Assembly (NCBI RefSeq): GCF_000227665.2
Contig: NZ_CP007030.1
Location: 186,001-250,000, forward strand
DNA from: Thiomicrospira aerophila AL3
GTDB lineage: Bacteria; Pseudomonadota; Gammaproteobacteria; Thiomicrospirales; Thiomicrospiraceae
Direction of reading: 5' to 3'
Length of the DNA stretch: 64,000 nt
This document shows, piece after piece, positions 1,135-63,919 of this stretch (within the stretch, counting starts at the first letter, position 1; each line of letters opens with the position of its first letter). The notes beneath the pieces were generated by a model. That model saw only the letters and a list, made by a program, of their open reading frames with translations. It was not told the origin of the DNA and searched no databases. The position numbers and the translations under genes are program-made.

Positions 1135-2982
1135 ATGTCTTTATTTGGTTTGTTTTTTACCCAGTTACCCGAAGCCTGTATTTTGGTGGACCCTTTCGCC
1201 AATAAGATTTGCTATCGCAATCTCAAAGCGCAACAACTACTGCCTGAGGTCGATCGGGCCACGGACATATTTAGCTCCCCGCCGGGTAAGTTGGTGGTAT
1301 TTACTCAAGAAATCCTGGAGAAACAGCAGGCCTGGTCGAGTGAGCTGAGTATTCGTTTGCAAAGTGGCAAAACCTTAGCGGTCGAGGCGTTGGGCTTTCG
1401 GGTTGCCGATGAATCTAGTCAATCACTGGTCGCGATGGTGTTGACCAGTAAGCCTAGCCTAGCTCAACGGCGGCAATTGGCTGAAGTGCATCGCTTGCAT
1501 CGCGATGGCTTGGTTTATTGGAAAACCATTGAGCAGGCGTTTCGTGAGTTTGAGCGCGAGAATGATTTAATTTTGCAGTCGGTCGGTGATGGGATTTATG
1601 GGGTGGATATCGACGGCAAGGCAACTTTTGTTAACCCGGCTTGTGAGCGTATTTTAGAGTGGCGCGCTGAAGAGATGATTGGGAAAAATGTTCATGATCT
1701 TATTCACCACCATCATCCCGACGGGCGCCATTATCATGGTCACGATTGTCCTATTTATGCCGCCTTTCGGGATGGTGAAATTCGTCAAGTCGATGATGAG
1801 GTGTTCTGGACCAAGAGTGGTCGTGCTATTCCGGTGGCCTATACCAGTACGCCGATTTTAGATTCGGGGCAATTGGTGGGTGCGGTGGTGGTGTTTCGTG
1901 ACATTAGTGAGCGTATCGAAGCTGAAACGCAGCTAAAGCATGCCTTGGCAGAAGTGCAGGCGCTTAAACAACGCTTAGAGGCTGAAAATGCCTATTTACA
2001 AGAAACGTATCGTATTGAACATAATTACAAGTCAATTGTCGGACGCAGCCGCGCCATTTTGCAGACCATTAAGCAGATAGATGTTGTCGCACCTACCGAT
2101 GCCAGCGTGTTGATTACTGGGGAGTCCGGTACAGGCAAGGAGCTGATTGCGCAGGCTATACATCAAGCCAGTGCTCGAGCGGAGCGTCCTTTTATCAAAG
2201 TGAACTGTGCCTCGATTCCGCATGAGCTATTTGAGAGTGAGTTTTTCGGGCATATTAAAGGCGCGTTTACCGGTGCGGTGCAAGATCGTGTTGGGCGCTT
2301 TGAGTTAGCGAATGGCGGCACGCTGTTTCTTGATGAAGTCGGTGAGATTCCCTTGGCATTACAAAGTAAGTTGCTGCGGGTGTTGCAGGAAGGGCAATTT
2401 GAGCGGGTCGGTGAGTCAAAAACGCGCCAAGTGAATGTGCGTATTTTAGCGGCCACTAATCGCGATCTGGATCAGGAAGTCAGTGCCAAGCGCTTTCGTG
2501 AGGACTTGTTTTTCCGCTTAAATGTCTTTCCGATTGCGTCTTACCCACTGCGTGAGCGGCGAGAAGATATTCCCTTATTAGCGGAACATTTTTTAACCAT
2601 AGTCTGTCGGAAATTTAATCGCGCTAAGTTGGTGTTTAGTCAGGCTGATATGCAGGCGATGCAGGGCTATGATTGGCCTGGCAATATCCGTGAATTGGTC
2701 AATGTGATCGAGCGCGGCGTGATCTTGGCACAGACAGATCGCTTTGTGTTAGAACTACCTAATCATGTGGAAGGTGAAGCGGTTGCCACACCGTCTAGTC
2801 GCTTGAACGCAGCACAAACTTGGCAGGAGATAGAGCAACGCGCATTGATCGCGGCGCTACAAGCCTGTCGCGGTAAAATTTTTGGTGAAGACGGCGCAGC
2901 AGCTCGCTTGGGACTAAAGCCGACGACCTTAAACTCGAAACTGGCCAAGCATAAGATCAATCGGCATCAATATGTGCGTTAA
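1135..2982 (+). CDS. PAS-domain sigma54-dependent transcriptional activator (NtrC/NifA class)
   Basis: This 615-residue enhancer-binding protein activates RpoN promoters. Residues about 1-130 look like a degenerate N-terminal sensor. A PAS domain follows at about 140-270 (GDGIYGVDIDGKATFVNPACERIL) with an unusual HHHHPDGRHYHGHDCP loop. The central AAA+ domain has Walker A GESGTGKE (about 329), the sigma54-contacting GAFTGA (about 376) and Walker B GGTLFLDEVGE. A Fis-type helix-turn-helix ends the protein (AAARLGLKPTTLNSKL). There is no receiver domain, so it is probably not part of a classical two-component pair. The start at 1135 has a weak ribosome site. Its 3' end overlaps lysA, which is convergent, by 4 bp. 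It most likely controls the divergent nitrate operon; the histidine-rich PAS may bind a metal or haem (inference). Confidence 0.88.
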   Translation: MSLFGLFFTQLPEACILVDPFANKICYRNLKAQQLLPEVDRATDIFSSPPGKLVVFTQEILEKQQAWSSELSIRLQSGKTLAVEALGFRVADESSQSLVAMVLTSKPSLAQRRQLAEVHRLHRDGLVYWKTIEQAFREFERENDLILQSVGDGIYGVDIDGKATFVNPACERILEWRAEEMIGKNVHDLIHHHHPDGRHYHGHDCPIYAAFRDGEIRQVDDEVFWTKSGRAIPVAYTSTPILDSGQLVGAVVVFRDISERIEAETQLKHALAEVQALKQRLEAENAYLQETYRIEHNYKSIVGRSRAILQTIKQIDVVAPTDASVLITGESGTGKELIAQAIHQASARAERPFIKVNCASIPHELFESEFFGHIKGAFTGAVQDRVGRFELANGGTLFLDEVGEIPLALQSKLLRVLQEGQFERVGESKTRQVNVRILAATNRDLDQEVSAKRFREDLFFRLNVFPIASYPLRERREDIPLLAEHFLTIVCRKFNRAKLVFSQADMQAMQGYDWPGNIRELVNVIERGVILAQTDRFVLELPNHVEGEAVATPSSRLNAAQTWQEIEQRALIAALQACRGKIFGEDGAAARLGLKPTTLNSKLAKHKINRHQYVR

Positions 2983-4226
2983 ATAAGCTGCTCTTTGCCC
3001 ATTAAGTCGTCATAGGTTTCGCGTGGACGCACTAACCAGGCCTGCTGGTTTTGTACCATCACCTCAGCCGCGCGTGGTCGAGTGTTGTAATTAGAGCTCA
3101 TGGTGAAACCATAGGCCCCTGCTGACATGACCGCCAATAAATCGCCGGCCTGCAGATTCAATAATCTATTTTTACCTAAAAAATCCCCCGTTTCACAAAC
3201 TGGCCCAACAACGTCCCATTCTACGGCTGTGCCTTCGTTTCTAGGGGTAACGGGGATGATGTCTTGATAAGCTTGATAGAGCGCCGGGCGAATGAGGTCA
3301 TTCATGGCGGCATCAATAATGGCAAAGTTTTTGTGTTCGGTGGGTTTAAGGTATTCCACCTCGGTCACCAAAATCCCCGCATTACCTGCGATAGCACGAC
3401 CCGGTTCAATGATGACCTCAATGCTGGGGTCATTCAGCTCGGTTAAGAGCGCGGCTAAATAATCGCTAATCGCCGGCGGCGTTTGATCTGTATAGCGAAT
3501 GCCTAAGCCGCCGCCTAAATCTAAATGGTGAATCTCAATGCCCAGTCCTGCGAGGGTTGTTTTGAGCTCTAAAACCTTTTTCAGCGCATCGACAAAGGGT
3601 GCAATCTCGGTGAGTTGTGAGCCAATATGGCAATCAATACCGATCACTTTGATATTCGGTAAAGCGGCAGCTTGTTGATAGAGCGCTGGCGCAGTCACGA
3701 TATCTACGCCAAATTTATTTTCCTTCAAGCCGGTGGAAATGTAAGGGTGCGTTTTGGCATCGACATTCGGGTTGACGCGAATCGAAATCGGCGCGATTTT
3801 ATCCATGTGAGCCGCAACGGCCTGAATGCGTGCCAGCTCGGCGTGGGATTCGATGTTAAAGCAACGTATGCCTACCGCGAGGGCGCGTTCAATTTCGATT
3901 TCTTTTTTGGCCACACCGGAGAACACCACTTTATTAGCTTGGCCACCGGCGCGCAGCACGCGTTCTAGTTCACCTTGCGACACAATATCAAAGCCGGAAC
4001 CTAATTGGGCGAGCACTTGCAAAACCGCAAGATTAGAATTGGTTTTGACCGCATAGCAAACGAGGTGAGGTTGACTGCCAAAAGCCTGATTAAATGCCTG
4101 CCAGCGTTGCTCAAGTTCGGTACGAGAGTAGATGTAAAGCGGGGTGCCATAGGTTTTAGCCAGCTCAGTAACAGCCTTGCCTTCTGCAAATAATTGGTTG
4201 TTTTGGTAGTGAAATAGGTCGCTCAT
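2979..4226 (-). CDS. lysA: Diaminopimelate decarboxylase
   Basis: LysA decarboxylates meso-diaminopimelate to L-lysine, the last step of lysine synthesis, using pyridoxal phosphate. The 415-residue protein shows the family hallmarks: YAVKTNSNLAVL with the PLP lysine, HIGSQL, HHLDLGGGLGI, EPGRAIAGNAGILVTEV and GPVCETGDFLGK near the C-terminus. The frame stays open upstream to 4346, but the ATG at 4226 follows an AAGGAAA ribosome site and gives the usual N-terminus (MSDLFHYQNNQL). The start overlaps the lptM stop as ATGA, so the two are translationally coupled. A CAGGCCTG palindrome at 3037 encodes the QQAW near its C-terminus. Confidence 0.95.
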   Translation of the reverse strand: MSDLFHYQNNQLFAEGKAVTELAKTYGTPLYIYSRTELEQRWQAFNQAFGSQPHLVCYAVKTNSNLAVLQVLAQLGSGFDIVSQGELERVLRAGGQANKVVFSGVAKKEIEIERALAVGIRCFNIESHAELARIQAVAAHMDKIAPISIRVNPNVDAKTHPYISTGLKENKFGVDIVTAPALYQQAAALPNIKVIGIDCHIGSQLTEIAPFVDALKKVLELKTTLAGLGIEIHHLDLGGGLGIRYTDQTPPAISDYLAALLTELNDPSIEVIIEPGRAIAGNAGILVTEVEYLKPTEHKNFAIIDAAMNDLIRPALYQAYQDIIPVTPRNEGTAVEWDVVGPVCETGDFLGKNRLLNLQAGDLLAVMSAGAYGFTMSSNYNTRPRAAEVMVQNQQAWLVRPRETYDDLMGKEQLI

Positions 4227-4396
4227 CGGGTTTCCTTGAAGGCTAAAGCCGGTTTGAATTCGTTTGGTGTCGCGTGGTGCGCGGCGGCGTGCACCTTGTC
4301 TGGCAAAGTGAGCGGCCCCTTTTTGCCACATCCGCCCATTAACCAAAGGAGGCTTATCAGCAGGCCTGCTTTAAAGCCAGTTGATTTTAAAGACAT
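4223..4396 (-). CDS. lptM: LptM (YifL-type) small outer-membrane lipoprotein
   Basis: A 57-residue lipoprotein. The signal peptide MSLKSTGFKAGLLISLLWLMGGC ends in a lipobox with the lipidated cysteine, followed by the signature GKKGPLTLP. In enterobacteria YifL/LptM associates with the LPS translocon LptD/LptE and aids LptD maturation, and it is commonly encoded just upstream of lysA or dapF, as here. The ATG at 4396 follows GGAGG with 6 nt spacing; a longer frame to 4414 lacks this. A CAGGCCTG site at 4361 lies inside the signal-peptide codons (AGL). Confidence 0.85.
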   Translation of the reverse strand: MSLKSTGFKAGLLISLLWLMGGCGKKGPLTLPDKVHAAAHHATPNEFKPALAFKETR

Positions 4397-4467
4397 GTGC
4401 AGCCTCCAGCGCAAGGGGTTAAAATGGGCTTATTTTAGCAGACTTTTAAAACAGATAGGACAGACGA

Positions 4468-5139: not shown

Positions 5140-5155
5140 TTACAAGGAGTTGAAT

Positions 5156-5567: not shown

Positions 5568-6785
5568 ATGAAGATATTATTGGGTGTCAGTGGCGGTATT
5601 GCGGCTTACAAAGCCTTGCAGCTCGTCAGGTTACTGGTGAAAGCCGGCCATCAAGTGCAAGTGGTCATGACCGAGGGCGCTAAACAGTTTGTGCAGCCGT
5701 TGTCTTTTCAAGCGCTATCGGGACGCCCTGTTCGGGATAGCCTATTTGATTTAGCGCAAGAAAATGGCATGGGGCATATTGAGTTGGCGCGTTGGCCAGA
5801 TTTGATTGTGTTAGCACCGGTGTCGGCCAATTTACTGGCACGTTTGCGGGTTGGCATGGCCGATGACCTATTGACCACCTTGTGTTTGGCTAGCGACCGT
5901 CCCATTCTGTTTGCACCCGCAATGAATCAATTAATGTGGGCAAATAGCGCGACGCAAGACAATGTGGCGGCATTGATGGCGCGAGGATGGCAGCTGATAG
6001 CGCCCGGCGAGGGTGAGCAGGCCTGCGGTGATGTGGGTGCGGGTCGCTTAGCGGAGCCAGATGATATAGCCCGAGCTGTCGCCGCTTATAATTCAGCGTC
6101 TGCAATAGCTGAAACAAGCCATCAGCAGACCTGGTTAGGTAAAAAAGTACTAATTACTGCGGGTCCCACTTTTGAAGATCTCGATCCGGTGCGTTTTATT
6201 GGCAATCGGAGTTCTGGGCAAATGGGCTTTGCCATAGCGGCCGCGGCGGCGCAAAAAGGTGCCGAGGTCACCCTAATCGCCGGTCCTGTCAATTTGGATA
6301 CGCCAACAGGTGTTACACGGATTAATGTTCGCTCGGCCATGCAAATGTTTAGCCAAGTGCAGGCCCATTATGCCAGTGTCGATATCATGATTGGTGCTGC
6401 TGCGGTCGCGGACTATCGCCTAGCGCAACCCTCGTCACACAAAATTAAAAAACAACCCAATCAAGATGAACTCACGCTGACGTTGATTAAAAACCCCGAT
6501 ATTATCGCTTGGGTCGCACAGCAGGTTGATAAGCCTTACGTGGTAGGCTTTGCTGCTGAAACTCAACAGCTAGCTGACTATGCGCGCCAAAAACGCCTGC
6601 AGAAGGGTTTGGATATGATTTGTGCCAATCAAGTGGGTGATGGCCAAGGTTTTGAAGTGGATGAGAATGCTTTGTTGGTGATGACCGCAACGGATGAGGT
6701 CGCCTTACCTAAGCAAGCCAAGTACAGCCTTGCTGTGGCGTTATTGGCGCAATTACGTAAACAACTAGATATAACAAAAGGGTGA
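5568..6785 (+). CDS. coaBC: Bifunctional phosphopantothenoylcysteine decarboxylase / phosphopantothenate-cysteine ligase
   Basis: A 405-residue CoaBC (Dfp), catalysing two consecutive steps of coenzyme A synthesis. The N-terminal flavodoxin-like CoaC domain starts LLGVSGGIAAYKALQLVRLL and includes the APAMNQLMW segment; the CoaB ligase half begins at about residue 188 (KKVLITAGPTFEDLDPVRFIGNRSSGQMGFAIA) and contains AAAVADYR and the late VVGFAAET. Length is normal for the fusion. The CAGGCCTG at 6018 encodes EQACGD in the CoaC half, the family's active-site cysteine region, so the palindrome sits in functionally constrained codons. Confidence 0.95.
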   Translation: MKILLGVSGGIAAYKALQLVRLLVKAGHQVQVVMTEGAKQFVQPLSFQALSGRPVRDSLFDLAQENGMGHIELARWPDLIVLAPVSANLLARLRVGMADDLLTTLCLASDRPILFAPAMNQLMWANSATQDNVAALMARGWQLIAPGEGEQACGDVGAGRLAEPDDIARAVAAYNSASAIAETSHQQTWLGKKVLITAGPTFEDLDPVRFIGNRSSGQMGFAIAAAAAQKGAEVTLIAGPVNLDTPTGVTRINVRSAMQMFSQVQAHYASVDIMIGAAAVADYRLAQPSSHKIKKQPNQDELTLTLIKNPDIIAWVAQQVDKPYVVGFAAETQQLADYARQKRLQKGLDMICANQVGDGQGFEVDENALLVMTATDEVALPKQAKYSLAVALLAQLRKQLDITKG

Positions 6786-7343: not shown

Positions 7344-10151
7344 TTACTTTAACCAGGATTTTAGATAGTAACCTGTGTGTGAATCAGGATGGTTGGCGAC
7401 ATCTTCCGGTGTGCCGGTGGCAATAATTTGACCGCCGCCCGCGCCACCTTCGGGACCGAGATCGACCAGCCAATCAGCGGTTTTAATCACATCGAGATTG
7501 TGTTCGATAATCACAATGGTATTGCCGCGATCACGTAATTCATAGACGACCTTCATCAGTTGTTCGATATCGTGAAAATGCAAGCCGGTGGTGGGTTCAT
7601 CCAAAATATACAGCGTGTTGCCGGTATCGCGTTTGGAGAGTTCTTTGGCCAGTTTCACGCGCTGGGCTTCACCACCTGATAGGGTGGTCGCGCTTTGGCC
7701 GAGTTTGATATAACCGAGTCCGACATCCATCAGGGTTTGCAATTTGCGCGCCAACGCCGGAATGGCGTCAAAAAACGCGCGCGCGTCTTCCACTGTCATG
7801 TCCAGAATGTCGTGAATGGTTTTGCCCTTGTACTGAATTTGCAAGGTTTCGCGGTTATAGCGCTGGCCGTGACAGACATCACAGGGCACATAGACATCAG
7901 GCAGAAAATGCATTTCAACTTTGATCACGCCATCACCTTGGCAGGCTTCACAGCGACCGCCTTTGACATTGAAGCTAAAGCGTCCCGGGTTATAACCGCG
8001 TGTGCGTGCTTCTGGCGTGGCGGCCAGTAATTCACGAATCGGCGTGAACAAACCGGTATAGGTGGCCGGATTGGAGCGCGGTGTGCGACCAATCGGACTT
8101 TGGTCAATATTCACCGCTTTGTCAAAGTGTTGCAAGCCTTCTACTTTTTGGTAAGGCGCGGGTTCGCCTAATGCGCCATTAAGATCCCGCGCAGCAATCT
8201 TGCTCAGAGTTTCGTTAATCAAGGTTGATTTACCTGAACCCGATACCCCAGTAATGCAAGTTAGCAGGCCTGCTGGAATTTCCAGGGTCACGTCTTTGAG
8301 ATTATTACCTGTTGCGCCAATAATTTTCAGCCAATTTTTGCCCGGTTTAACCCGTTGTGGCGGCACTTCAATTTTGCGTTTACCGCTAAGGTATTGGCCG
8401 GTTAGCGATTGCGGATTGGCTTTGACCTCATCAGGCGTGCCTTGCGCCATAATGCGCCCACCGTGAATGCCGGCACCGGGGCCAATGTCTAATACATAGT
8501 CAGCGGCGCGTATCGCATCTTCATCGTGTTCGACCACAATGACGGTGTTACCCAAGTCACGCAGATGGGTCAGGGTGCGCAGCAAACGGTCGTTATCCCG
8601 TTGGTGCAACCCAATCGAGGGTTCGTCCAACACATACATCACACCCACCAGGCCTGCACCAATCTGACTGGCAAGGCGAATGCGTTGCGCTTCGCCACCG
8701 GAGAGGGTGTCGGCGCTGCGATCCAGGGTTAAATAGTTCAAGCCCACATTCACCAAAAACGACAGGCGTTCACGGACTTCTTTTAAAATCGGTGCGGCAA
8801 TTTGGCCTTTCGCGCCTGGCAGGCTGAGTTGGTCAAAAAATGCATACAACTCGCCGACCGATTTATGGGTCAGTTTGGGCAGGGTGATATCAGCGACAAA
8901 CACATGGCGCGCCGCTTCGTTTAAGCGCTCACCGCCACAGGTTTTACAGGGAGTGGTGACGCGATATTTATCCAGCTCATCGCGCACGGTTTTGCTTTCG
9001 GTTTCCGCATAGCGTCGCTCCATATTGGGCAACACGCCCTCAAAACGGCGCACCTCGGAATATTTACCGTGCGGCAGGGCTAAGCGTTCGCGTCCTGAGC
9101 CATACAGCACGATTTGGCGGGCTTTTTCATCCAGCTCTGCCCATGGGGTTTCCATATCAAAGCCATAGTGGGTCGCCACAGCCAATAGAATATCGTAATA
9201 GTATTTATGGCGACGATCCCAGCCACGAATCGCCCCGCCGGCCAAACTCAATTCCGGGTGCGTAATCACGCGATCCGCATCAAAGCTTTCTTTAATCCCC
9301 AAGCCATCACAGGTTGGACAGGCGCCATGCGGGTTGTTAAATGAGAATAAACGCGGTTCGAGTTCCGGCACGCTATAGCCACAATGCGGGCAAGAGAACT
9401 TGTCGGAAAACAGCAACTCAAAGTCATCGTCTTCGTCCATCGGCACCACACGCGCCAAGCCATCTGACAATCGCAGCGCGGTTTCAAAGGATTCGGCCAA
9501 GCGTTGTTTCAGATCCTCACGCACTTTAAAGCGGTCAATCACCACTTCGATATCGTGCTTTTTGTTTTTATCGAGCGCAATCGAGCCGTCTAAATCCATT
9601 AAGCGGCCATTAATGCGCGCACGGATAAAGCCCTGGGCTTTCAATTCATCTAACAGATTGTTGTGCTCACCTTTACGGCCACGCACCACTGGCGACACCA
9701 ATAAACATTTGGTGCCCTCCGGCAGTTCAAGCGTACGGTCGACCATTTGACTGACGGTTTGCGCTTCCAGGTCAACATCGTGAGTTGGGCAGCGCGGTGT
9801 GCCGGCGCGGGCGTACAATAAGCGTAGATAATCGTAAATTTCCGTGACGGTGCCGACGGTGGAACGTGGGTTGTGAGAGGTGGATTTTTGCTCAATCGAA
9901 ATCGCCGGTGACAAGCCTTCAATATGGTCTAAATCGGGTTTTTCCATCACCGATAAAAACTGGCGTGCATAGGCTGACAGTGATTCGACATAACGGCGTT
10001 GGCCTTCGGCGTAGATGGTATCAAACGCTAAGGATGATTTACCTGATCCCGATAAGCCGGTAATCACAATCAGCTTGTCGCGCGGCAAAGTGACATCAAT
10101 ATTCTTTAAATTATGCGTCCGCGCCCCGCGAATAATAATCTTCTCAAGCAT
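7344..10151 (-). CDS. uvrA: Excinuclease ABC subunit A
   Basis: UvrA is the damage-recognition ATPase of nucleotide excision repair. The 935-residue protein has two ABC ATPase modules (Walker [13 protein letters not shown] near residue 30 and [12 protein letters not shown] near 643; signatures [11 protein letters not shown] and [11 protein letters not shown]) and zinc modules (CPHCGY...CPTC and CEACQGDG...[10 protein letters not shown]). The frame extends to a TTG at 10175, but the ATG at 10151 gives the conserved N-terminus [18 protein letters not shown]. An extended -10 (TGTTATAAT) lies upstream. No LexA-type CTGT-N8-ACAG site was seen. Two CAGGCCTG palindromes (8265, 8649) encode AGL. Confidence 0.98.
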
Positions 10152-10191: not shown

Positions 10192-10270
10192 TGATTCGTT
10201 TTTACACCGATTTAACAAGCAGGCCTGGTGAGCAGTCGCTTGATTTTTCCTTTTTCGCATTTTCTTCACG

Positions 10271-10290
10271 CTTAACCAGGCCTGGTTAAG
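10271..10290. repeat. Perfect 20-bp palindrome CTTAACCAGGCCTGGTTAAG in the uvrA / flavin-reductase intergenic region
   Basis: The longest perfect copy of the CAGGCCTG family. It is one of only two copies outside genes; the other is at 10220 in the same 186-bp gap. It lies 48 bp upstream of the flavin reductase start, with no T-tract to make it a terminator. The rest of this gap shows only the uvrA -10 element. Confidence 0.9.
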
Positions 10291-11338: not shown

Positions 11339-11725
11339 ATGTATTATGTAATGAATACCAAAAAAACCTTTGAGCAGGCCTGCGAAGCCCTCAATGCGGC
11401 GGTGGTGGTTATTCCTTTTGGGGTCTTGCATGTGCATGATCTGGGCGCTACGTTGCGCAGTAAAGGTTTTGAGTTTGCCGAAGAATGCCGTGTGTTTGAA
11501 GTATGTGGCCCAGGGGTGGCCTCGCAAGTACTGGCGGCAGATATGCGTTTAAATATGGCACTACCTTGTCGCATATCGGTCTTTACCGAGCAAGGCCAGG
11601 TTAAAATTGGCATGATTGAACCGGTTCATCTATTGAGTTGTTTAACCGATGATTCCGCCATTAAAGCAGTCGCATCTGAGGTGCAAACTAAGTTAACCCA
11701 GGCGATTGATCAAGCCGCGCAGTAA
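11339..11725 (+). CDS. DUF302 domain-containing protein
   Basis: A 128-residue protein resembling the DUF302 family: MYYVMNTKKTFEQACEALNAAVVVIPFGVLHVHDLGATLRSKGFEF, then CRVFEVCGPGVASQVLAADMRLNMALPCRISVFTEQG, the conserved core with a cysteine before the GP turn. DUF302 proteins are small cytosolic beta-alpha proteins of unknown function, often near sulfur or redox genes. The ATG at 11339 follows AAGGAG with 5 nt spacing; the frame extends upstream but without a ribosome site. A CAGGCCTG at 11375 encodes EQACEAL. Confidence 0.75.
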   Translation: MYYVMNTKKTFEQACEALNAAVVVIPFGVLHVHDLGATLRSKGFEFAEECRVFEVCGPGVASQVLAADMRLNMALPCRISVFTEQGQVKIGMIEPVHLLSCLTDDSAIKAVASEVQTKLTQAIDQAAQ

Positions 11726-11825: not shown

Positions 11826-13412
11826 ATGTTGAGCTATGTTATGGATCGGCCGGCTAATCAAAGCAAGCCAAGGGTACAACTGGTCTGGTTTAAGCGTGAT
11901 TTGCGTATCCATGATCATGCGCCGCTGTATTTTGCCGCCCAGCAGGGCGCGGTCTTACCTGTCTATGTTTTCGAGCCAGTGCTTTGGCAACAGCCGGATG
12001 CCAGTTTGCGCCAATGGCGATTTGTCGCGGATTGTTTGCTGGACTTGGATGCGGACTTACGTGCGTTGGGTCAAGGCTTGGTGTTTGCGGTTGGCGAGGT
12101 GACCGACCTATTTGCGCAGCTTCAACAGGATTATCAGATCAGCGCGATCTGGTCGCATCAAGAAACCGGCAATGCCTGGAGCTATCAACGCGATAAGCAG
12201 GTTAAAGCTTGGTTAAAAGATCAACAGATTCCTTGGTATGAATTAGCCCAGCATCCGATAAAACGTGGCCCAGCACAACGAGATCATTGGCAGGCTCAAG
12301 CCGAACAGTTTTTTCAACAAGCCTTCATCCCCGCACCGGCCAGCTTATCAGGCCTGCTGATGGCGCCGCCGTTAACTGCCAACGGGCTGGCCCAGCAGCT
12401 TGAAGATCATTTGCCGAGACCGATTGTGCCCGATGAGCAGACTCAGCCGGGCGGGCGGCGACGCGGCGAGCAACGCTTGGCCGATTTTCTGCAGCGCCAT
12501 CTATCGCGTTATTTGTATGACATTGCCAAGCCGTTGGCTGCCCGACAATCCAGTTCACGGCTCAGCCCACATTTAGCTTGGGGCAGTCTGTCGATTCGTG
12601 AGGTGATGCAAGCCGCCTACAGCGCGCGAGGCAAGTTGGGCGAAAAAAATGGCCGCGCCTTAAGTGCTTTCGTGTCACGGCTTCACTGGCAAAGCCATTT
12701 TATGCAAAAACTGGAAACCGAGCCGGCACTGGAGTTTAACTGTTTGCAAGCTGAAACAGAGGGGCTGCGAAGCCAAGGTCAGTATCCGACACGTTTGCAG
12801 GCTTGGTTTGAAGGACAAACTGGCGTGCCGTTGGTCGATGCGTGTATGCGTTGCTTGCGCCATACCGGTTGGTTACCGTTTCGGATGCGGGCGATGGTGA
12901 TGAGTTTTGCCAGTTATCAGCTTTGGCTAGATTGGCGCGATACAGCACCATTGCTGGCGCGTTTGTTCACTGATTATGAACCGGGCATTCATTACTCGCA
13001 GGTACAAATGCAATCCGGCACCACCGGGATTAATGCGATGCGGGTGTATAACCCGGTTAAGCAGTCACAAGACCATGACCCTGAAGGTCGTTTTATCAAG
13101 CAGTGGTGTCCTGAACTGGCCGGTTTAGAGGCCGCGTTTATTCACGCACCTTGGGATGCGGCGCCGGAATGGTTGGCACAAGCAGGCCTGGTGTTGGGGC
13201 AAGATTATCCCTGGCCGATTGTTGATCTTGAGCAGTCAGCGCGTGAGGCAAAACAACAGCTTGCCGCGTTACGCAAGCAACCGAGTGCTCGTGCACAAGC
13301 GCAGCAAGTTTATGTTAAGCATGGTAGCCGCTTGCGTCCGGCCAGTCGGCGTAGGTCTAAAAAAATTGCCAGCGCTCGTGAAGCTGATAGTCCACAATTG
13401 AGTTTGTTTTAA
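11826..13412 (+). CDS. FAD-binding photolyase/cryptochrome family protein
   Basis: A 528-residue DNA photolyase/cryptochrome superfamily protein. The N-terminal antenna-chromophore Rossmann domain begins [22 protein letters not shown]; the C-terminal FAD domain includes [58 protein letters not shown] and [27 protein letters not shown]. It is diverged from the CPD photolyase at 35.6-37 kb, and I cannot assign its subclass (repair enzyme or signalling cryptochrome). A basic tail ([16 protein letters not shown]) could bind nucleic acid. An alternative ATG at 11841 has a slightly better ribosome site. DUF2256 follows with no gap. Confidence 0.88.
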
Positions 13413-13583
13413 ATGAAAATGCGCAAGAAATCCGAGTTGCCGACCAAAACCTGCCCGGTTTGTGTGCGTCCGTTTGTCTGGCGCAAAAAGTGGGCGAAGG
13501 ATTGGGAGCAGGTGATGTATTGTTCGGAACGTTGTCGGCGGTCTGCAAAACACGGCAAACAAGGCGGTAGCAAAGATGATTAG
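13413..13583 (+). CDS. DUF2256 zinc-finger-like small protein
   Basis: A 56-residue basic protein beginning immediately after the photolyase stop and overlapping the next start by 8 bp. Four cysteines (14, 17, 37, 41) form CPVC...YCSERC, a probable zinc ribbon, with the family's [19 protein letters not shown] core. From memory, DUF2256 genes commonly neighbour photolyase/cryptochrome genes in marine gammaproteobacteria; function is unknown. The tight overlaps imply co-translation with its neighbours. A role in nucleic-acid binding or photolyase assembly is only a suggestion. Confidence 0.85.
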
Positions 13584-51023: not shown

Positions 51024-52241
51024 ATGATCGATAATCACGCCATTCGTGCTGAATTTCCTTTGCTTGCTCAAACTGAGAAGGGTTTGCCATTAGTTTATTT
51101 GGATAACGCTTCGACAAGCCAAAAGCCTCAGCAGGTGATTGATGCAATTGAACACTATTATCGCGCAGAAAATGCCAATGTTCATCGCGGTGTATATGGT
51201 CTTAGTGAGCGTGCTACTGAAGCTTTTGAAGGGGTTAGAGGCCAGGTGCAGGGCTTATTAAATGCCGCCTCAAGTAAAGAGATTATTTTTGTGCGAGGCG
51301 CGACCGAGGGTATTAACCTGGTAGCCAGCTCATGGGGGCGCAGTAGCTTACAGCTAGGCGATCAAATCATTGTGAGTGAAATGGAGCACCATTCAAACTT
51401 AGTGCCTTGGCAGCTTTTGGTAGCGGACTTAGGGATTGAAATTGTTAAGTGGCCTATTGATGAGTTAGGTCAATTGCACCTGAGTGATCTAGCAGGCCTG
51501 CTGAATGAAAAAACCCGTTTAGTGGCAGTGACCCATATGTCGAATGCGTTGGGTACGATTAATCCAATCGCCGATATTATTGCCCTGGCGCATCAGCATG
51601 GGGCGAAAGTCTTGGTCGATGCCGCACAGTCTGTTTCGCACATGCCGATTGATGTGCAAGCGCTTGATGTCGATTTTTTGGTGTTTTCTGGCCATAAAAT
51701 GTACGGTCCGACCGGTATTGGCTGCTTGTATGCTAAGCAAGCTCTGCTAGAGCAGATGCCACCCTATATGGGTGGGGGTGACATGATTTATCAGGTTAGC
51801 TTTGCGGGTACGAGTTTTAATGAGTTGCCCTATAAGTTTGAAGCGGGCACGCCCAATATTGCCGGGGTGATTGGCTTAGGTGCGGCAATTCGCTTCATTG
51901 AGCGAGTTGGTTTTGACACCATTGCAGCCATTGAAGAAGACTTGTTAGCCTATGCGACAGCGAAGCTCAGTAAGATTAATGGGCTGCGTATCATCGGCGA
52001 AGCAGCGCATAAGGGTGGGGTTATTTCATTTGTGTTTGACCAAGCTCATCCGCATGATATTGCAACTTTGATTGATCAAGATGCAATTGCTTTGCGTGCG
52101 AGTCATCATTGCGCTATGCCCATTATGCAAAAGTATGGTCTGCCTGCGACTTTGCGCGCCTCCTTTGGTGTTTATAATAATCGAGCGGATGTTGACCGCC
52201 TATGTGTGGCGTTAGAAGAAGCCTTGGCGATGTTGGCTTAA
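51024..52241 (+). CDS. sufS: Cysteine desulfurase SufS
   Basis: A 405-residue PLP enzyme that supplies sulfur for the Suf system. YLDNASTSQKPQQVIDAIEHYYRAENANVHRGVYGLSERATEAFEG, VLVDAAQSVSHMPIDVQALDVDFLVFSGHKMYGPTGIG (PLP lysine) and the late RASHHCAMPIMQKYG with the catalytic cysteine confirm a group II desulfurase. Its usual activator SufE/SufU is not downstream. CAGGCCTG at 51493 encodes AGL. Confidence 0.96.
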   Translation: MIDNHAIRAEFPLLAQTEKGLPLVYLDNASTSQKPQQVIDAIEHYYRAENANVHRGVYGLSERATEAFEGVRGQVQGLLNAASSKEIIFVRGATEGINLVASSWGRSSLQLGDQIIVSEMEHHSNLVPWQLLVADLGIEIVKWPIDELGQLHLSDLAGLLNEKTRLVAVTHMSNALGTINPIADIIALAHQHGAKVLVDAAQSVSHMPIDVQALDVDFLVFSGHKMYGPTGIGCLYAKQALLEQMPPYMGGGDMIYQVSFAGTSFNELPYKFEAGTPNIAGVIGLGAAIRFIERVGFDTIAAIEEDLLAYATAKLSKINGLRIIGEAAHKGGVISFVFDQAHPHDIATLIDQDAIALRASHHCAMPIMQKYGLPATLRASFGVYNNRADVDRLCVALEEALAMLA

Positions 52242-54661: not shown

Positions 54662-55370
54662 GCTGGGGTTGGTTGTTTTATTGGCAGGCCTGGTGGTCGT
54701 CTGGGTGCTGCTTATGATGAAACCTGAGCAGAATGCGACATTGTCCTATAAAATAATCTCACCCTTACAAAACATTACGCTAGATCAAGTTGAAGATCAG
54801 ATATGGCCCTATTTAGAGCAGAGTTTTTGGGATGTTGATCTGGTCGGTTTGCAGCAGGTTTTACAATTAAACCCATGGGTTGAATCTGCCTTTGTTTCAA
54901 AACAGTGGCCTAATCAGCTGGTTTTGAAGCTTGTAGAGCGTGAACCAGTGGCACGGTGGCGACAACAAAGCTTAGTTGACCGGCAAGGAGTGATATTTAA
55001 CCCAGATGATGTTGCAGCATTTGGGCACTTGGTCGTTCTTGATGCGCATGAGCTTCAATCTCGCGCAATGTTACGTCATTGGTCTGAAGTCCAGGCTTTG
55101 TTAAATCCGCTAGATTGGCAAGTACTCGGCATGACGTGGTTTGCAGATGATGTATTAAAAGTGGATGTCGATGCGGGTCATCAAATCTACTTAATAGCGA
55201 GTGATAAAAAGCAATTAGTCCAGCGTTTTATGCTAGCTTGGCCTAAGTTGTCAGATAGCACGGTTCAGCCTGTGATACTAAACAGTGCTCTAAAACAGTC
55301 AGCTAGATGGAAAATTGATTTAAGATACAGTAATGGTATGGCGCTAAACCCTTTAAATAATGTTGATTGA
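54642..55370 (+). CDS. ftsQ: Cell division protein FtsQ
   Basis: A 242-residue bitopic inner-membrane divisome protein. One helix near the N-terminus (LKLGLVVLLAGLVVVWVLLMM) is followed by the periplasmic POTRA (SPLQNITLDQVEDQIWPYLEQSFWDVDLVGLQQVLQLNPWVESAFVSKQWPNQLVLKLVEREPVARW) and the beta domain. It links FtsA/FtsZ-dependent assembly to septal synthases with FtsL/FtsB. The CAGGCCTG at 54685 lies in the helix codons. The ATG at 54642 follows an in-frame TTG. Confidence 0.93.
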   Translation: MLHRWLKLGLVVLLAGLVVVWVLLMMKPEQNATLSYKIISPLQNITLDQVEDQIWPYLEQSFWDVDLVGLQQVLQLNPWVESAFVSKQWPNQLVLKLVEREPVARWRQQSLVDRQGVIFNPDDVAAFGHLVVLDAHELQSRAMLRHWSEVQALLNPLDWQVLGMTWFADDVLKVDVDAGHQIYLIASDKKQLVQRFMLAWPKLSDSTVQPVILNSALKQSARWKIDLRYSNGMALNPLNNVD

Positions 55371-58073: not shown

Positions 58074-60824
58074 ATGTTTATGTCATTTCTTCAAAAATTA
58101 TTAGGTAATCGTAATCAACGCTTGGTTAAGCAGTATCAAAAACGGGTTGCGCTGATCAATGCCCATGAGGAGGCAATGGCAAAACTGACGGATGAAGCCT
58201 TGCAGGCTAAAACGGGCGAATTTAAGTTTCGTCTTGCGAGCAATGAAGCATTAAATGATATTTTACCTGAAGCCTTTGCTGTGGTGCGAGAAGCCGGTAA
58301 ACGTGTACTGGGTATGCGCCATTATGATGTGCAAATGATAGGTGGTATGGCACTGAATGATGGTCGAATTGCAGAGATGCGCACCGGTGAAGGTAAAACC
58401 TTAGTTGCAACCTTGCCTGCTTACCTAAATGCGTTAGCTGGTGGCGGGGTGCATGTGATCACTGTTAACGATTATCTTGCCAAGCGTGACGCCGAATGGA
58501 TGAGTCAGTTGTATGGGTTTTTAGGTTTAACGACTGGCGTGATTTTGAGTGGTCAAAGTCACCAGGAAAAACAGTTAGCCTATGCAATGGATATTACCTA
58601 CGGTACCAATAATGAATTTGGTTTTGATTATTTGCGTGACAATATGGCGATCTTTAAAGAAGAGCGCGTCATGCGCGGTCAAGCCTTTGCGATCATCGAT
58701 GAAGTCGACTCGATTTTGATAGATGAAGCTAGAACGCCGTTAATTATTTCCGGACCCGCTGAGAATAAAGCACAGGTATATCACAAGATTAATCCTTTAA
58801 TCAGTCATCTAGAGCGTGGTGAAGAAGATCCGATTGAGAAAACCGCGACGGGTGACTACACCGTTGATGAAAAAAACCGTCAAGTCTATTTAACGGAACA
58901 AGGTCATGAAAAGATTGAAAACCTTTTGGCAGAGGTTGAGCTGCTCAAAGACGGTGAAAGTCTTTATGATGCAACCAATATTGGTTTGATGATTCACGTG
59001 AATGCAGCGCTGCGTGCGCATGTTTTATTTGAGCGTAATCGTGATTATATTGTCGATGATGGTCAAGTCATTATTATCGACGAACATACGGGTCGTAAGA
59101 TGATTGGTCGTCGTTGGGGCGAGGGCTTACATCAAGCCGTTGAAGCCAAAGAGGGTCTTGAGATTCAGAGTGAGAGTCAAACCTTCGCCTCGATTACCTT
59201 CCAAAACTATTTTAGACAGTATCAAAAATTGTCTGGTATGACCGGTACGGCGGATACTGAAGCCGGCGAGTTTTTGTCAACTTACAAATTAGAAGTGGTT
59301 GTAATTCCGCCTAATAAAACGCCGCAACGGGAAGACTTAACTGATTTGGTTTTTTTGGATGTCCAGTCTAAGTTTAAAGCGATTGTTGAGGACGTTAAAG
59401 CAACCCACGCCAAAGAGCAGCCCGTTCTAATCGGTACGGCTTCGATTGAAATGTCAGAGCTTTTATCGGCAGCCTTTACGCAGTCAGGTGTAAAGCATGA
59501 GGTGTTGAATGCTAAACAACATGAGCGTGAAGCGCACATTATTGCTAATGCGGGACGAACTGGTGCAGTAACCATTGCAACCAATATGGCGGGTCGTGGT
59601 ACGGACATTGTGCTTGGCGGAAGTTTAGACGTTGAGTTAGAAGAATTGGGCCCAGATGCGGATGCAGAAGCGAAAGCGAAAGTTAAAGCGGCTTGGCAGC
59701 TCCGTCATGATCGCGTGTTAGAGTTGGGCGGCCTTAAAGTGATTGGCTCGGAACGTCATGAGTCACGCCGTATTGATAATCAGCTGCGTGGTCGTTCCGG
59801 TCGTCAAGGTGATCCCGGTGTGACGCGTTTCTACTTGTCGCTTGATGATGATTTGATGCGTCGTTTTGCGTCTGAGAAGGTAAAGAATATGATGCGTCGC
59901 TTAGGGATGGCTGAAGGTGAAGCGATAGAGCATCCGATGGTAAGTCGTTCAATTGAGCGTGCGCAAAAGCAAGTCGAACGTTTACATCAAGATGAACGCG
60001 CCAATCTATTGAAATTCGATGACGTATCCAACGAACAGCGCAAAGTGGTGTATCAGCAGCGTAATGAGTTAATGGAAAGCGAAGAGGTTCGTGAAACCAT
60101 TAAGATTATGCGTGAAGACGTGGTCAATGAAATTGTCGATGACTTTATCGCACCGGGTAGTTTGGATGAGCAGTGGCGCATTCCAGAGCTTAACCATGCG
60201 CTAGAGGAAAGCTTTGGTATTAAAGTCGATGTGCAGGCCTGGTTAGATGCGGACGCGTCCTTGTATGAAGAAACCTTGCGTGAAAAAATTGTCGCTGAAG
60301 TACAGTCTCACTATGATCAAAAAATGGCCATTATTGATGAGAAAACCTTGGGTCATTTTGAAAAAGAGTTGTTGTTGCGCAATATTGATAAATTATGGCG
60401 TGAGCATTTATCTGAGATGGATTACTTGCGTCGCGGTATTCATCTGCGTGGCTTTGCCCAGCGCGATCCTTTCCAGGAGTACCGTCGTGAAGCAGCATTA
60501 CTGTTCCAAGGCTTCCTAAATGAAGTTAAAAAAGAAACGATTAAAATGTTGTCACTGGTGCAGTTACACAGTCAACAAGATGTAGCCGCCTTCGAAAAAC
60601 AGCAGCAAGCTGAATTGGAAAAAGATATGCAGCAAGCGCAGGCTTCTCATCCAGCGGCTGCTGCTGCACCTCAGGCTGAGTCACCAGCGACATCAAATAA
60701 TGCTGTTGCTGACAATGCCAAGGAGCAAACTTTCCGTCGCGAAACCCCTAAGCTTGGGCGTAACGATCCTTGTTCCTGTGGTTCAGGCAAAAAATACAAA
60801 CATTGTTGTGGTAAGTTAGATTAA
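58074..60824 (+). CDS. secA: Preprotein translocase ATPase SecA
   Basis: A 916-residue SecA that drives proteins through SecYEG. It has the DEAD motor ([41 protein letters not shown]), the second nucleotide domain ([31 protein letters not shown]) and the C-terminal zinc tail [19 protein letters not shown] that binds SecB. Either ATG 58074 or 58080 may start translation; the upstream TTG at 58053 is less likely. Only one CAGGCCTG (60234) lies in its 2.75 kb. Confidence 0.98.
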
Positions 60825-60846
60825 TTTTTATTCTTAGAGGTGCATC

Positions 60847-62070
60847 ATGCCTGTTGGTCTTGCGTACGAGTTGCCAGAAATTCATCCAGTTGCCGGTGTT
60901 TATTTAGGTGCGACGGCCGCTAAAATTAAAAAAAATGGTAAAACAGATTTGGTCGTTATGGAGTTTGCACCGGGCAGTGTGACCGCCGCAACCTTTACCA
61001 CTAACGCTTGTTGTGCTGCACCGGTTCATGTCGCGAAAGCCCACTTAGCGGCCGAGCAACCACGGGCGTTATTAATTAATTCGGGTAATGCGAATGCGGC
61101 GACTGGCGAGTCGGGAATGGTGAATGCTAAGCAAACCTGTCAGTGGTTGGCTGATGAATTAGGGTGCGAGCCGGAAGAAATTTTGCCCTTCTCGACAGGG
61201 GTAATTGGCGAACCCTTGCCGATGAATAAAATTCAATTGGGTTTAGTTGCGGCTGTAGCTGATCGCGCTATTGACCACTGGCCTCATGCTATGGCCGGTA
61301 TCATGACCACCGATATTGTGCCTAAAATGGTCAGTCGTGTAATTAACATTGACGGGCATGATATTACTATCACGGGTATGGCTAAAGGCTCGGGGATGAT
61401 TCATCCTAATATGGCGACGATGCTGGGCTTTGTGGCCACTGACGCCAAAATCACCGCCGAACTATTGCAGGCCTGCTTAAGTCAGGCCGTTAAAAAGTCA
61501 TTTAACCGGATTACGGTGGATGGTGATACTTCGACTAACGATGCCTGTACGCTAACGGCCACACAACAGGCCGATATGCCAACGATGACCGATGCGAATT
61601 CGCCTCAATATAAGCTATTTGCGGCAGAGATTGAGCGAGTGATGACCGAGCTTGCGCAGATGATTGTGCGTGATGGTGAAGGTGCAACCAAGTTTATTAG
61701 TGTGGAAGTCAATGGTGGCGAATCTGAGGCAGAGTGTTTGCAGGTCGCGCATGCGGTTGCCCTTTCTCCGTTGGTGAAAACCGCCATGTTTGCATCAGAT
61801 CCAAATTGGGGTCGTATTTTGGCCGCTGTGGGCCGTGCGGGCGTAAAAAACTTAGACATTAATCGCTTGCAGATTTTTTTGGGTGACGTATGTATCGTGC
61901 GTGATGGTGGTCGTGCCAGCGACTATACCGAAGAACAGGGGCAGCAGGTCATGAAATCGGAAGATATTGCGGTACGTATCGAGCTTAATCGGGGTCAGCA
62001 TAGTGAAACCGTTTGGACCTGCGATTTCTCCTATGATTACGTTAAAATCAATGCGGAGTATCGCTCTTAA
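60847..62070 (+). CDS. argJ: Bifunctional glutamate N-acetyltransferase / ornithine acetyltransferase
   Basis: A 407-residue ArgJ that recycles the acetyl group in arginine synthesis. The autocleavage site is KGSGMIHPNMATMLGF, where Thr is the nucleophile (about residue 189), separating alpha and beta chains; ITVDGDTSTNDACTL and KTAMFASDPNWGRILAAVGRAG are also typical. The mutT-thiE start directly abuts its stop. argC is separate at 30.4 kb. Confidence 0.95.
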   Translation: MPVGLAYELPEIHPVAGVYLGATAAKIKKNGKTDLVVMEFAPGSVTAATFTTNACCAAPVHVAKAHLAAEQPRALLINSGNANAATGESGMVNAKQTCQWLADELGCEPEEILPFSTGVIGEPLPMNKIQLGLVAAVADRAIDHWPHAMAGIMTTDIVPKMVSRVINIDGHDITITGMAKGSGMIHPNMATMLGFVATDAKITAELLQACLSQAVKKSFNRITVDGDTSTNDACTLTATQQADMPTMTDANSPQYKLFAAEIERVMTELAQMIVRDGEGATKFISVEVNGGESEAECLQVAHAVALSPLVKTAMFASDPNWGRILAAVGRAGVKNLDINRLQIFLGDVCIVRDGGRASDYTEEQGQQVMKSEDIAVRIELNRGQHSETVWTCDFSYDYVKINAEYRS

Positions 62071-63030: not shown

Positions 63031-63635
63031 TTTCTTTGTGTAACGGACGCTAACCAGGCCTGCAAAGCTTGATGCAATGCTGCGAGCGAACTAGTGTTAT
63101 TAATAATGCTATCGGCTAAGTCTTGGCGTGTGGCGGGGTCCGCTTGTTGAGCCATAATGCTTTCGATTTGTTCAATGGCGCGTTGATCACGGGTTGCAAC
63201 GCGTTGACGTTGTAAAGCAGGGTCGCATTCAATTAATAGGACATGGTCGATTTGATAAGCCGGTTGCATGACTTGGCTAATCACTGGGATGGCAACAAAG
63301 ATCAACTTGTGTTGGGTTTTGAGTACCTCAACTTGAGCGCTTACCTGTTGGCGAACCAAGGGGTGAATGATCTGTTCGATGTCATGTTTCAGTTTTTGAT
63401 CACTGAAAAAAGCCGCGGCGAGTTTTGGGCGGTCTAATTCACCTTGTGGGGTTAAAAATCGATTACCATGATGAGCAATTATCGCTTGCAATCCGGCCTG
63501 TCCGGTTTGCATGAGCTGTTTTGCAACCTGATCGGTATCGATGACTGGATAGCCTTGCTCAGCAAAGTAACTACAAGCCGCCGATTTACCACAGCCTATC
63601 CCACCGATAACGGCAACTACCAGGCCTGGTGTCAT
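63027..63635 (-). CDS. coaE: Dephospho-CoA kinase
   Basis: A 202-residue P-loop kinase for the last step of coenzyme A synthesis. VAVIGGIGCGKSAACSYF is Walker A, DTDQVAKQLM and IFVAIPVI follow, and DHVLLIECDPALQRQRVATRDQR holds the lid. Start chosen at the ATG at 63635 (after AAGGTG) rather than the longer frame to 63722. The start overlaps the parvulin stop as ATGA. Confidence 0.94.
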   Translation of the reverse strand: MTPGLVVAVIGGIGCGKSAACSYFAEQGYPVIDTDQVAKQLMQTGQAGLQAIIAHHGNRFLTPQGELDRPKLAAAFFSDQKLKHDIEQIIHPLVRQQVSAQVEVLKTQHKLIFVAIPVISQVMQPAYQIDHVLLIECDPALQRQRVATRDQRAIEQIESIMAQQADPATRQDLADSIINNTSSLAALHQALQAWLASVTQRN

Positions 63636-63919
63636 GGCCACACCTTCTGATGAACCCAAACGATATGCCAACCTAACGACGATTGAAAGGGTTCGCTTGG
63701 GCATGCAACAGGGGCATTCCATAGTCCACGTTCAAAGTCTCGTTCAAGCAGGCCTGGTGCCATAAAACCTAAATCCCCTTCATGCGATTTGCTAACACAG
63801 ATTGAATAGCGCGTGACGGCCTCGGTAAAGCTCAACTCTTGCGCAACTAATCGGGGGTATAGGCGTGCTGCAATTTTTCGCGAAGGCAGCAAGATATGAC
63901 TGGCATGGATTAATGGCAT
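63632..63919 (-). CDS. Small parvulin-type peptidyl-prolyl cis-trans isomerase (PpiC-like)
   Basis: A 95-residue single parvulin domain: ASHILLPSRKIAARLYPRLVAQELSFTEAVTRYSICVSKSHEGDLGFMAPGLLERDFERGLWNA...SSLGWHIVWVHQK. The catalytic SHILL and late GWHIV are present; the central VSKSHEGDLGFMAPG replaces the usual CPSGKRGGDLG. It lacks a signal peptide, so it is cytosolic. Translationally coupled to coaE. CAGGCCTG at 63749 encodes PGL. Confidence 0.85.
   Translation of the reverse strand: MPLIHASHILLPSRKIAARLYPRLVAQELSFTEAVTRYSICVSKSHEGDLGFMAPGLLERDFERGLWNAPVACPSEPFQSSLGWHIVWVHQKVWP

What the first reader, a model, noticed from the sequence alone, without database searches (positions are those of the whole stretch)
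1327..63756. A HIP1-like highly iterated palindrome, CAGGCCTG, saturates the window
Thirty-nine exact copies against about one expected, with a preferred 12-mer ASCAGGCCTGST, is the largest signal here. It is strand-symmetric, single-copy at each place and mostly inside genes, unlike uptake sequences in terminator pairs, REP elements or Chi. Cyanobacterial HIP1 (GCGATCGC) behaves this way, but I know of no described family with this core. It contains StuI (AGGCCT) and HaeIII (GGCC) sites, and CCAGG/CCTGG ends when S is C/G, so a methyltransferase, a very-short-patch-repair bias, a nucleoid or chromosome-segregation protein, or DNA uptake are candidate causes.
Basis: partly seen in the sequence, partly recalled or inferred. 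Interest (0 to 1): 0.9.

Follow-up and report, generated by a model that had tools for sequence, protein, structure and literature searches.

The report
Genome-wide iterated palindrome in Thiomicrospira
A 12-letter mirror-symmetric DNA word is repeated about a thousand times, mostly inside genes, in sulfur-oxidising Thiomicrospira and many of its relatives; it is held in place by a force acting on the DNA itself, has local dialects, and does not track the DNA-methylating enzymes tested here, unlike the well-known case of this kind in cyanobacteria.

Summary
The window holds 39 CAGGCCTG against 0.9 expected; the genome holds 1128 in 2.16 Mb, its reversed control 1. The unit is the 12-mer ASCAGGCCTGST, about 825-fold enriched. 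Synonymous codon shuffling gives 20 copies, not 213; codons inside the motif keep their spelling 1.7-3.7 times better than the same codons elsewhere against G006. The motif multiplies the tripeptide Gln-Ala-Trp sevenfold. It is abundant in 9 of 9 genus members and 31 of 62 family genomes, but not in 365 sampled genomes of the class outside the family (0-8 copies). Flanks differ between lineages; one relative carries 1025 copies of ACCGGCCGGT instead. Seven motif- or dialect-bearing genomes have no hit to three DNA-methyltransferase families; Vsr occurs in 2 of 32 genomes, both motif-poor. Best reading: binding sites of a two-fold-symmetric, probably homodimeric, DNA-binding protein, each under weak selection or drive; a palindromic uptake signal is the main rival. 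The protein was not identified. It behaves like cyanobacterial HIP1 but lacks the methyltransferase association so far as tested.

The parts
1327..1334 (.). CAGGCCTG copy (flanks AG/GT)
3037..3044 (.). CAGGCCTG copy
4361..4368 (.). CAGGCCTG copy
6018..6025 (.). CAGGCCTG copy
8265..8272 (.). CAGGCCTG copy
8649..8656 (.). CAGGCCTG copy
10220..10227 (.). CAGGCCTG copy
10277..10284 (.). CAGGCCTG copy inside a longer perfect inverted repeat (GCTTAACCAGGCCTGGTTAAGC)
   Evidence: folds at -12.5 kcal/mol
11375..11382 (.). CAGGCCTG copy
12349..12356 (.). CAGGCCTG copy
13183..13190 (.). CAGGCCTG copy
13771..13778 (.). CAGGCCTG copy
14359..14366 (.). CAGGCCTG copy
14935..14942 (.). CAGGCCTG copy
23752..23759 (.). 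CAGGCCTG copy
24175..24182 (.). CAGGCCTG copy
25196..25203 (.). CAGGCCTG copy
25895..25902 (.). CAGGCCTG copy
27639..27646 (.). CAGGCCTG copy
30915..30922 (.). CAGGCCTG copy
35173..35180 (.). CAGGCCTG copy
36286..36293 (.). CAGGCCTG copy
36702..36709 (.). CAGGCCTG copy
36933..36940 (.). CAGGCCTG copy
40517..40524 (.). CAGGCCTG copy
43614..43621 (.). CAGGCCTG copy
44426..44433 (.). CAGGCCTG copy
44890..44897 (.). CAGGCCTG copy
45762..45769 (.). CAGGCCTG copy
46232..46239 (.). CAGGCCTG copy
46752..46759 (.). CAGGCCTG copy
47676..47683 (.). CAGGCCTG copy
51493..51500 (.). CAGGCCTG copy
54685..54692 (.). CAGGCCTG copy
60234..60241 (.). CAGGCCTG copy
61468..61475 (.). CAGGCCTG copy
63055..63062 (.). 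CAGGCCTG copy
63621..63628 (.). CAGGCCTG copy
63749..63756 (.). CAGGCCTG copy

Best explanation
The palindrome ASCAGGCCTGST is the recognition site of a two-fold-symmetric, probably homodimeric, sequence-specific DNA-binding protein present in Thiomicrospira and part of its family. Each site adds a very small advantage (or is favoured by a biased conversion process) independently of its neighbours, so sites arise by point mutation anywhere, inside genes as well, and are then kept in place. When the protein's specificity changes or the protein is lost, old sites decay and a new dialect builds up. Shown here: the enrichment, the symmetry and specificity profile, DNA-level conservation within the genus, non-synonymous cost, dialects, lack of hits to three searched methyltransferase families in seven motif- or dialect-bearing genomes, absence of an ori/ter pattern. 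Inferred: that a dimeric protein reads the site, and that it acts inside the cell (architecture, repair or self-recognition of the chromosome). The protein was not identified.
For: Enrichment falls stepwise as either half-site weakens: AS/AS 142 seen vs 0.13 expected, AS/non-A-S 71 vs 0.74, two non-A-S 6 vs 1.02, as for additive binding energies of two equal half-sites. Half-sites 1-6 bp further apart show no excess (0 copies each, but under 1 expected each). Core single mismatches with intact flanks 48 vs 6.4 (7.5-fold, my sum) against 848-fold for the full 12-mer. Sites kept at orthologous places within the genus: 21 of 38 in G006 vs 12% of control octamers; 11 of 13 in G007 vs 11%. In G006, Gln CAG inside motifs kept 74 of 81 vs 890 of 1704 elsewhere; Leu CTG 61 of 73 vs 300 of 1337. 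Spacing is random (CV 0.98; simulated 0.88-1.12), as for independent sites. A/T tracts flank the core on both sides, about one helical turn from the dyad, in genic as well as intergenic copies of G011 and G028 (12 and 18 copies), which suggests a larger symmetric complex. Dialects.
Against: No such protein was found; the only unbiased attempt covered 35 genes. Fast dialect change, and absence in sister species without a clear excess of decayed remnants, sit badly with an essential architectural protein. No ori/ter pattern. Against the genus member G001 only 1 of 13 sites is kept, and outside the genus 1 of 4 (G031) and 0 of 5 (G020). The same data would fit a symmetric uptake receptor or an unrecognised modification enzyme.
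Confidence: 0.48

Rival explanations
1. It is a DNA-uptake signal: naturally competent cells prefer DNA carrying the palindrome, and transformation drives sites to high number, as for DUS in Neisseriaceae and USS in Pasteurellaceae.
For: Dialects between and within genera, as described for DUS and USS (PMC12616744, passages). A/T tracts flanking the core, recalling the A/T-rich part of the extended USS. Excess between genes in five sister genomes: G029 15 of 32, G028 7 of 18, G011 4 of 12, G020 9 of 28, G031 7 of 27 against 8-16% non-coding. Some intergenic copies in G028, G020 and G029 are inverted repeats with T tails next to gene ends, as told of DUS/USS. Resident DNA is saturated, a low-GC stretch is not (1-6 per 20 kb vs about 10). 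ComEC in 34 of 36 genomes.
Against: The two described families of uptake signal are not palindromic (PMC1939737, passages). Thiomicrospira copies show no excess between genes (26 of 241 vs 9.6% non-coding). ComEC is equally present in motif-poor relatives. No paper on competence in these genera was among those listed (12 of 54; 10 of 1569). Neighbouring sites are not spaced out.
Confidence: 0.3
2. It is a HIP as modelled for cyanobacteria: a resident DNA methyltransferase plus biased mismatch repair creates and keeps the palindrome.
For: Same phenomenology as HIP1: GC-rich palindromic octamer, extended flanks, alternate palindromes replacing it in related genomes (PMC4390886, sections read). 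Elhai also lists four HIP1-rich strains without a recognisable CGATCG methyltransferase. On a 12-mer basis the one-mismatch class here is about 23-fold enriched (201 vs 8.8, my sum), as graded as HIP1's 11-fold for a 10-mer (1830 vs 160, PMC1939737).
Against: PF00145 in 0 of 9 genus members. No PF00145, PF01555 or PF02086 hit in G002, G003, G011, G020, G023, G033 and the dialect genome G029. AGGCCT and GGCC outside the motif are not enriched (160 vs 199; 0.78 of expected).
Confidence: 0.1
3. Codon or amino-acid usage, or a mobile repeat, produces the copies.
For: Two of three frames are used (96 and 109 of 215 against 10), reading Gln-Ala-Trp/Cys or Gly-Leu.
Against: Synonymous shuffles give 20 on average, largest 31 in 20 shuffles, against 213. 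QAW is 55 per 100,000 residues vs 7.9 expected, and 5.4 vs 4.7 in motif-poor relatives, so the motif shapes the protein, not the reverse. Sequence around copies is unrelated beyond the motif and single-base steps separate many orthologous forms.
Confidence: 0.02

Closest known systems
HIP1 (GCGATCGC) and alternate HIPs of cyanobacteria
   Same: GC-rich palindromic octamer with extended flanks; about 520 copies per Mb here, inside the range of 500-2500 that Elhai gives for HIPs; replaced by other palindromes or absent in some relatives (PMC4390886, sections read). That HIP1 lies mostly inside genes is recalled.
   Different: Different sequence and phylum; no hit to three methyltransferase families in seven motif- or dialect-bearing genomes; A/T-tract flanks in two sister genomes.
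DUS / USS uptake sequences (Neisseriaceae, Pasteurellaceae)
   Same: About 1000 copies, dialects, some copies in terminator-like inverted repeats, A/T flanks in some genomes, excess between genes in sister genomes.
   Different: Palindromic; no excess between genes in Thiomicrospira; no competence paper found among those listed.
Chi recombination sites
   Same: Over-represented octamer.
   Different: E. coli Chi (GCTGGTGG) is not palindromic and is 6.7-fold enriched (1008 vs 151, PMC1939737); here 27-fold for the octamer (241 vs 8.9) and 825-fold for the 12-mer.
Binding sites of Noc/SlmA-type nucleoid proteins (recalled, not searched)
   Same: Palindromic sites of dimeric proteins spread over the chromosome.
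   Different: Those number tens and avoid the terminus (recalled); here over 1000 with no broad terminus dip.

Membership tests
HIP (highly iterated palindrome) class | Palindromic oligomer hugely over-represented genome-wide | tested here: met
   1128 copies vs reversed control 1; 39 vs 0.9 in the window
HIP (highly iterated palindrome) class | Alternate palindromes replace it in related genomes | tested here: met
   G029: ACCGGCCGGT 1025, other 61 family genomes 0-15
HIP (highly iterated palindrome) class | Associated with a methyltransferase specific for an inner sequence | tested here: not met
   No PF00145/PF01555/PF02086 hit in G002, G003, G011, G020, G023, G033, G029. Three families only; PF02384, PF07669, PF05063 not searched. 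Elhai also reports four HIP1-rich strains without one
HIP (highly iterated palindrome) class | Site is methylated in the cell | not testable with these tools
   needs long-read sequencing
DNA uptake sequence (DUS/USS) | Preferential uptake of DNA carrying it | not testable with these tools
   needs transformation assay
DNA uptake sequence (DUS/USS) | Competence machinery present | tested here: inconclusive
   ComEC in 34 of 36, motif-rich and motif-poor alike; other competence genes not tested
DNA uptake sequence (DUS/USS) | Non-palindromic, directional motif | tested here: not met
   two-fold symmetry of the core and equal half-site flanks
DNA uptake sequence (DUS/USS) | Excess between genes | tested here: inconclusive
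   absent in G000 (26 of 241); G006 4 of 32 against 4.5% non-coding; present in G029 (15 of 32), G028 (7 of 18), G011 (4 of 12), G020 (9 of 28), G031 (7 of 27)
Very-short-patch repair footprint | vsr gene present; T:G-derived neighbours depleted | tested here: not met
   Vsr in 2 of 32, both motif-poor; G-to-A neighbours not depleted
Chromosome-segregation / terminus-avoiding nucleoid sites | Trend between origin and terminus | tested here: not met
   20-kb bins holding the dif-like site have 14 (G000) and 6 (G006) copies; one bin beside it in G000 has 4, the next three after it 15, 13, 12

The most novel reading that the evidence does not exclude
A modification-free, sequence-written self-mark: a symmetric protein reads a palindrome that saturates resident DNA and is scarce in newly acquired DNA, so that kin DNA (at uptake, repair or defence) is told from foreign DNA without methylation, with dialects that separate lineages.
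Probability: 0.3. Interest if true: 0.95.

Novelty: new variant of a known kind. Interest (0 to 1): 0.82.

Why it matters
HIP1, described in 1995, still lacks an agreed function, and the model read here (PMC4390886) rests on methyltransferases. A second HIP system outside cyanobacteria, strong enough to change protein sequences, present in about half of 62 family genomes and absent from the rest, with no hit to three methyltransferase families in seven motif- or dialect-bearing genomes, is a natural experiment: presence and absence within single genera make the causal gene findable by comparison, and cultured species such as Hydrogenovibrio halophilus make pull-down and transformation tests practical.

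Tried and rejected
Methyltransferase families PF00145, PF01555, PF02086: patchy, do not follow the motif. Vsr: only in motif-poor G034 and G035. ComEC: nearly everywhere, uninformative. Nucleoid-occlusion idea: an apparent dip in 20-kb samples near mid-chromosome proved to be mainly a low-GC stretch at 1.18-1.32 Mb, not the dif-like site at 1.02 Mb. Decayed 'ghost' sites in motif-poor relatives: no clear excess; G035 and G030 each have a single one-mismatch copy, reached by 7 of 60 control palindromes. Synteny comparison for a gene missing in motif-poor genomes: only 35 genes covered, 4 not found. One of the 4, window 57534-57986 (minus strand), is kept in G001, G002 and G006 and was not found between its neighbours in G030; Pfam calls it DciA, the replicative-helicase loader, a gene that may have diverged beyond the search, so I do not propose it. 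Amino-acid conservation at sites against motif-poor orthologues: 18 pairs, too few to judge. Phages: 6 viral contigs matched the paired pattern; each locus held has just 2 copies, chance-like. The paper search for the letters CAGGCCTG found 848 papers, of which 20 were listed and none concerned this by title; the rest were not screened.
Full report
What is there. CAGGCCTG occurs 39 times in the window against 0.91 expected from dinucleotide shuffles; the runner-up palindromic octamer has 9 copies. The window is bases 186001-250000 of a single 2,158,359-bp contig, which holds 1128 copies; the same word read backwards occurs once. The window itself is ordinary core genome (for example genes matching Pfam families of UvrA, SufBD, Mur ligase, D-Ala-D-Ala ligase, FtsA, LpxC and SecA; 30 of its reading frames were scanned there, one more).

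Which organism. Contig lengths identify two relatives: G003 contig 132 and a record of Thiomicrospira sp. Kmv17 are both 83,620 bp, and G020 and Hydrogenovibrio halophilus DSM 15072 both 2,356,686 bp. So genus g1 is taken as Thiomicrospira and g6 as Hydrogenovibrio; g3 is probably Thiomicrorhabdus (inference from the names).

Distribution. The 9 genus members held carry 840-1128 copies. With SCAGGCCTGS, 31 of 62 family genomes have at least 100 copies: 9 of 9 in g1, 7 of 11 in g6, 14 of 32 in g3, 1 of 1 in g4, none in g2 (4), g5 (1) and g7 (4); one further g3 genome has 85 and the other 30 have 29 or fewer (my tally). In 369 genomes drawn from the class, the 12-mer is abundant only in G000 (658) and G006 (495); the two other family members drawn have 0, and the 365 genomes outside the family have 0-8. 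A mild excess of the octamer exists elsewhere (for example G048 108 vs reversed control 15, G042 114 vs 27); it was not followed.

Dialects. G029 has 12 CAGGCCTG but 1025 ACCGGCCGGT; the other 61 family genomes have 0-15 of the latter (first seen as an unexpected top word). Flanks vary too: RRCAGGCCTGYY makes 217 of the copies in G000 and 193 in G002, but 0, 3 and 5 in G001, G003, G005 of the same genus; 761 in G076; and 403, 379 and 326 in G023, G033 and G019, whose SCAGGCCTGS counts (375, 132, 198) are well below their CAGGCCTG counts (900, 653, 859). In G011 and G028 A/T tracts flank the core at 5-9 bases, inside genes too (AT 0.91 and 0.84 at -8 to -5, genome AT about 0.56), whereas Thiomicrospira G000 shows none (0.50). 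These flank logos rest on 12 and 18 sites. The samples of motif-poor G016, G030 and G032 showed no comparable palindrome; that of G035 showed a local repeat.

What the force acts on. Within-gene synonymous shuffles leave 20 of 213 coding copies. The tripeptide QAW occurs 55 times per 100,000 residues in G000, 7.9 expected; 67 of 76 are spelt CAGGCCTGG; motif-poor relatives show 5.4 against 4.7. So the DNA word changes proteins. Where the amino acid is unchanged, codons inside motifs keep their spelling more often than the same codons elsewhere: against G006, CAG 74 of 81 vs 890 of 1704, GCC 68 of 81 vs 1029 of 2500, GGC 51 of 70 vs 982 of 2326, CTG 61 of 73 vs 300 of 1337. The smaller comparisons (G002, G008, G007) agree in direction; G001 does not for GCC (1 of 3 vs 95 of 251) and is weak for CTG (2 of 7 vs 20 of 145). 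Whole sites: kept in 21 of 38 (G006), 11 of 13 (G007), 10 of 14 (G008), 21 of 37 (G002), against 12%, 11%, 36%, 34% of control octamers, but only 1 of 13 against G001, control 10% (gapped sites counted as not kept). Outside the genus few sites could be aligned: G031 1 of 4, G020 0 of 5, and 0 of 8 in motif-poor G035, G016 and G030 together.

Specificity. Enrichment by flank class in G000 runs from 1057-fold (AS on both sides) through 96 and 38 to about 6-7, then near background. With a motif-masked background the 12-mer is 825-fold enriched (142 copies vs 0.17) and 848-fold over the sampled genus sequence (276 vs 0.33). With one mismatch anywhere in the 12-mer it is about 23-fold (201 vs 8.8): 133 vs 1.6 at the outer A, 20 vs 0.7 at S, 48 vs 6.4 in the core (my sums). 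Taken as octamers regardless of flanks, one-letter neighbours are at background in G000, 169 against 180 (my sum), though in G006 CAGACCTG is in excess, 10 against 2.1. For 10-mers the published one-mismatch excess is 11-fold both for HIP1 (1830 vs 160) and for an uptake sequence (947 vs 86) (PMC1939737, table passage), so gradedness does not tell the classes apart. In a mutation-selection or drive balance, 825-fold corresponds to a scaled strength of about 6.7 per site (inference).

Layout. Gaps between copies are random: CV 0.98, simulated 0.88-1.12; gaps under 500 bp 59 vs 55. Bins of 20 kb holding the dif-like site have 14 copies in G000 (site at 1,022,726) and 6 in G006 (943,886), genome means about 10 and 9; one neighbouring G000 bin has only 4. 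The one broad trough, 1.18-1.32 Mb with 1-6 copies per bin, is lower in GC (0.40-0.45) with skew near zero in part of it, and I read it as an island. In G028, G020 and G029 several intergenic copies extend to stems of 11 bp or more with T-rich tails and fold at -10 to -20 kcal/mol; I chose these four examples, so this is illustration, not a rate.

Mechanism. Symmetry of core and flanks, additive half-site effects and a stringent core point to a two-fold-symmetric protein. Site independence fits a small effect per site. Cytosine methylation is unlikely: PF00145 is missing from 9 of 9 genus members (present in 8 of 36 family genomes), PF01555 has hits in 18 of 36 and none in G002, G003, G005, G011 and others, and PF02086 has hits in 5 of 27; G002, G003, G011, G020, G023, G033 and G029 lack hits to all three. 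G000 itself has two PF01555 genes, one in the low-GC stretch. Families such as PF02384 and PF07669 were not searched. Whether the protein works inside the cell or at DNA uptake cannot be settled here; the palindrome favours the former, the dialects, A/T tracts, intergenic excess in sister genomes and terminator-like copies the latter.

Literature. Of PMC4390886 I saw the abstract and sections 2.3, 2.5.2, 2.6, 3.1 and part 1 of 3.4, with passages; of PMC12616744 the abstract, outline and passages; of PMC1939737 and PMC8022716 passages only. Thiomicrospira (or 'Thiomicro') was searched in PMC4390886, PMC12616744 and PMC8022716 with 0 occurrences, the letters CAGGCCTG in PMC4390886 and PMC8022716 with 0. 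Paper searches listed 20 of 848, 20 of 269, 12 of 54, 15 of 49, 10 of 27, 10 of 1569, 20 of 20 and 12 of 287; none of the listed titles and abstract openings describes this motif. Most subscription papers and all bioRxiv preprints are outside the library.

Noticed in passing
window 11826-13412, 13576-15105, 35639-37075: Three photolyase/cryptochrome-related genes within about 25 kb (two DNA_photolyase/FAD_binding_7, one DPRP).
   Followed up: no
G000 C1:1180001-1320000 (loci L300-L304, L069, L070): Lower-GC, motif-poor stretch with partly flattened GC skew that also holds one of the genome's two PF01555 methyltransferase genes (L048): probable island.
   Followed up: partly
L170: 8-kb contig of a MAG labelled Methyloprofundus (Kmv24) with 6 copies and Thiomicrospira-like flanks; misbinning or a second host lineage was not resolved.
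   Followed up: partly
L144 (L165 has similar flanks): Anaerolineae bin SKYB113 has a local array of repeats about 22 bp apart containing CAGGCCTG, different in kind.
   Followed up: no
G000 samples, window included: ACCTGCTC and CCTGCTCA remain about 4.5-fold over expectation after masking the motif (52 vs 11, 65 vs 14): possibly a second, non-palindromic word.
   Followed up: no
L086-L089 (G035): Local repeat built on words such as GACTCGGA and GAGTCAGA in a motif-poor relative.
   Followed up: no
G034 C8 and G035 C1: The two genomes with Vsr also carry a C5 methyltransferase about 6 kb away.
   Followed up: no
window 57534-57986 (minus): DciA-family gene between lpxC and secA; not found between the same neighbours in the sample of G030, probably by divergence.
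   Followed up: partly
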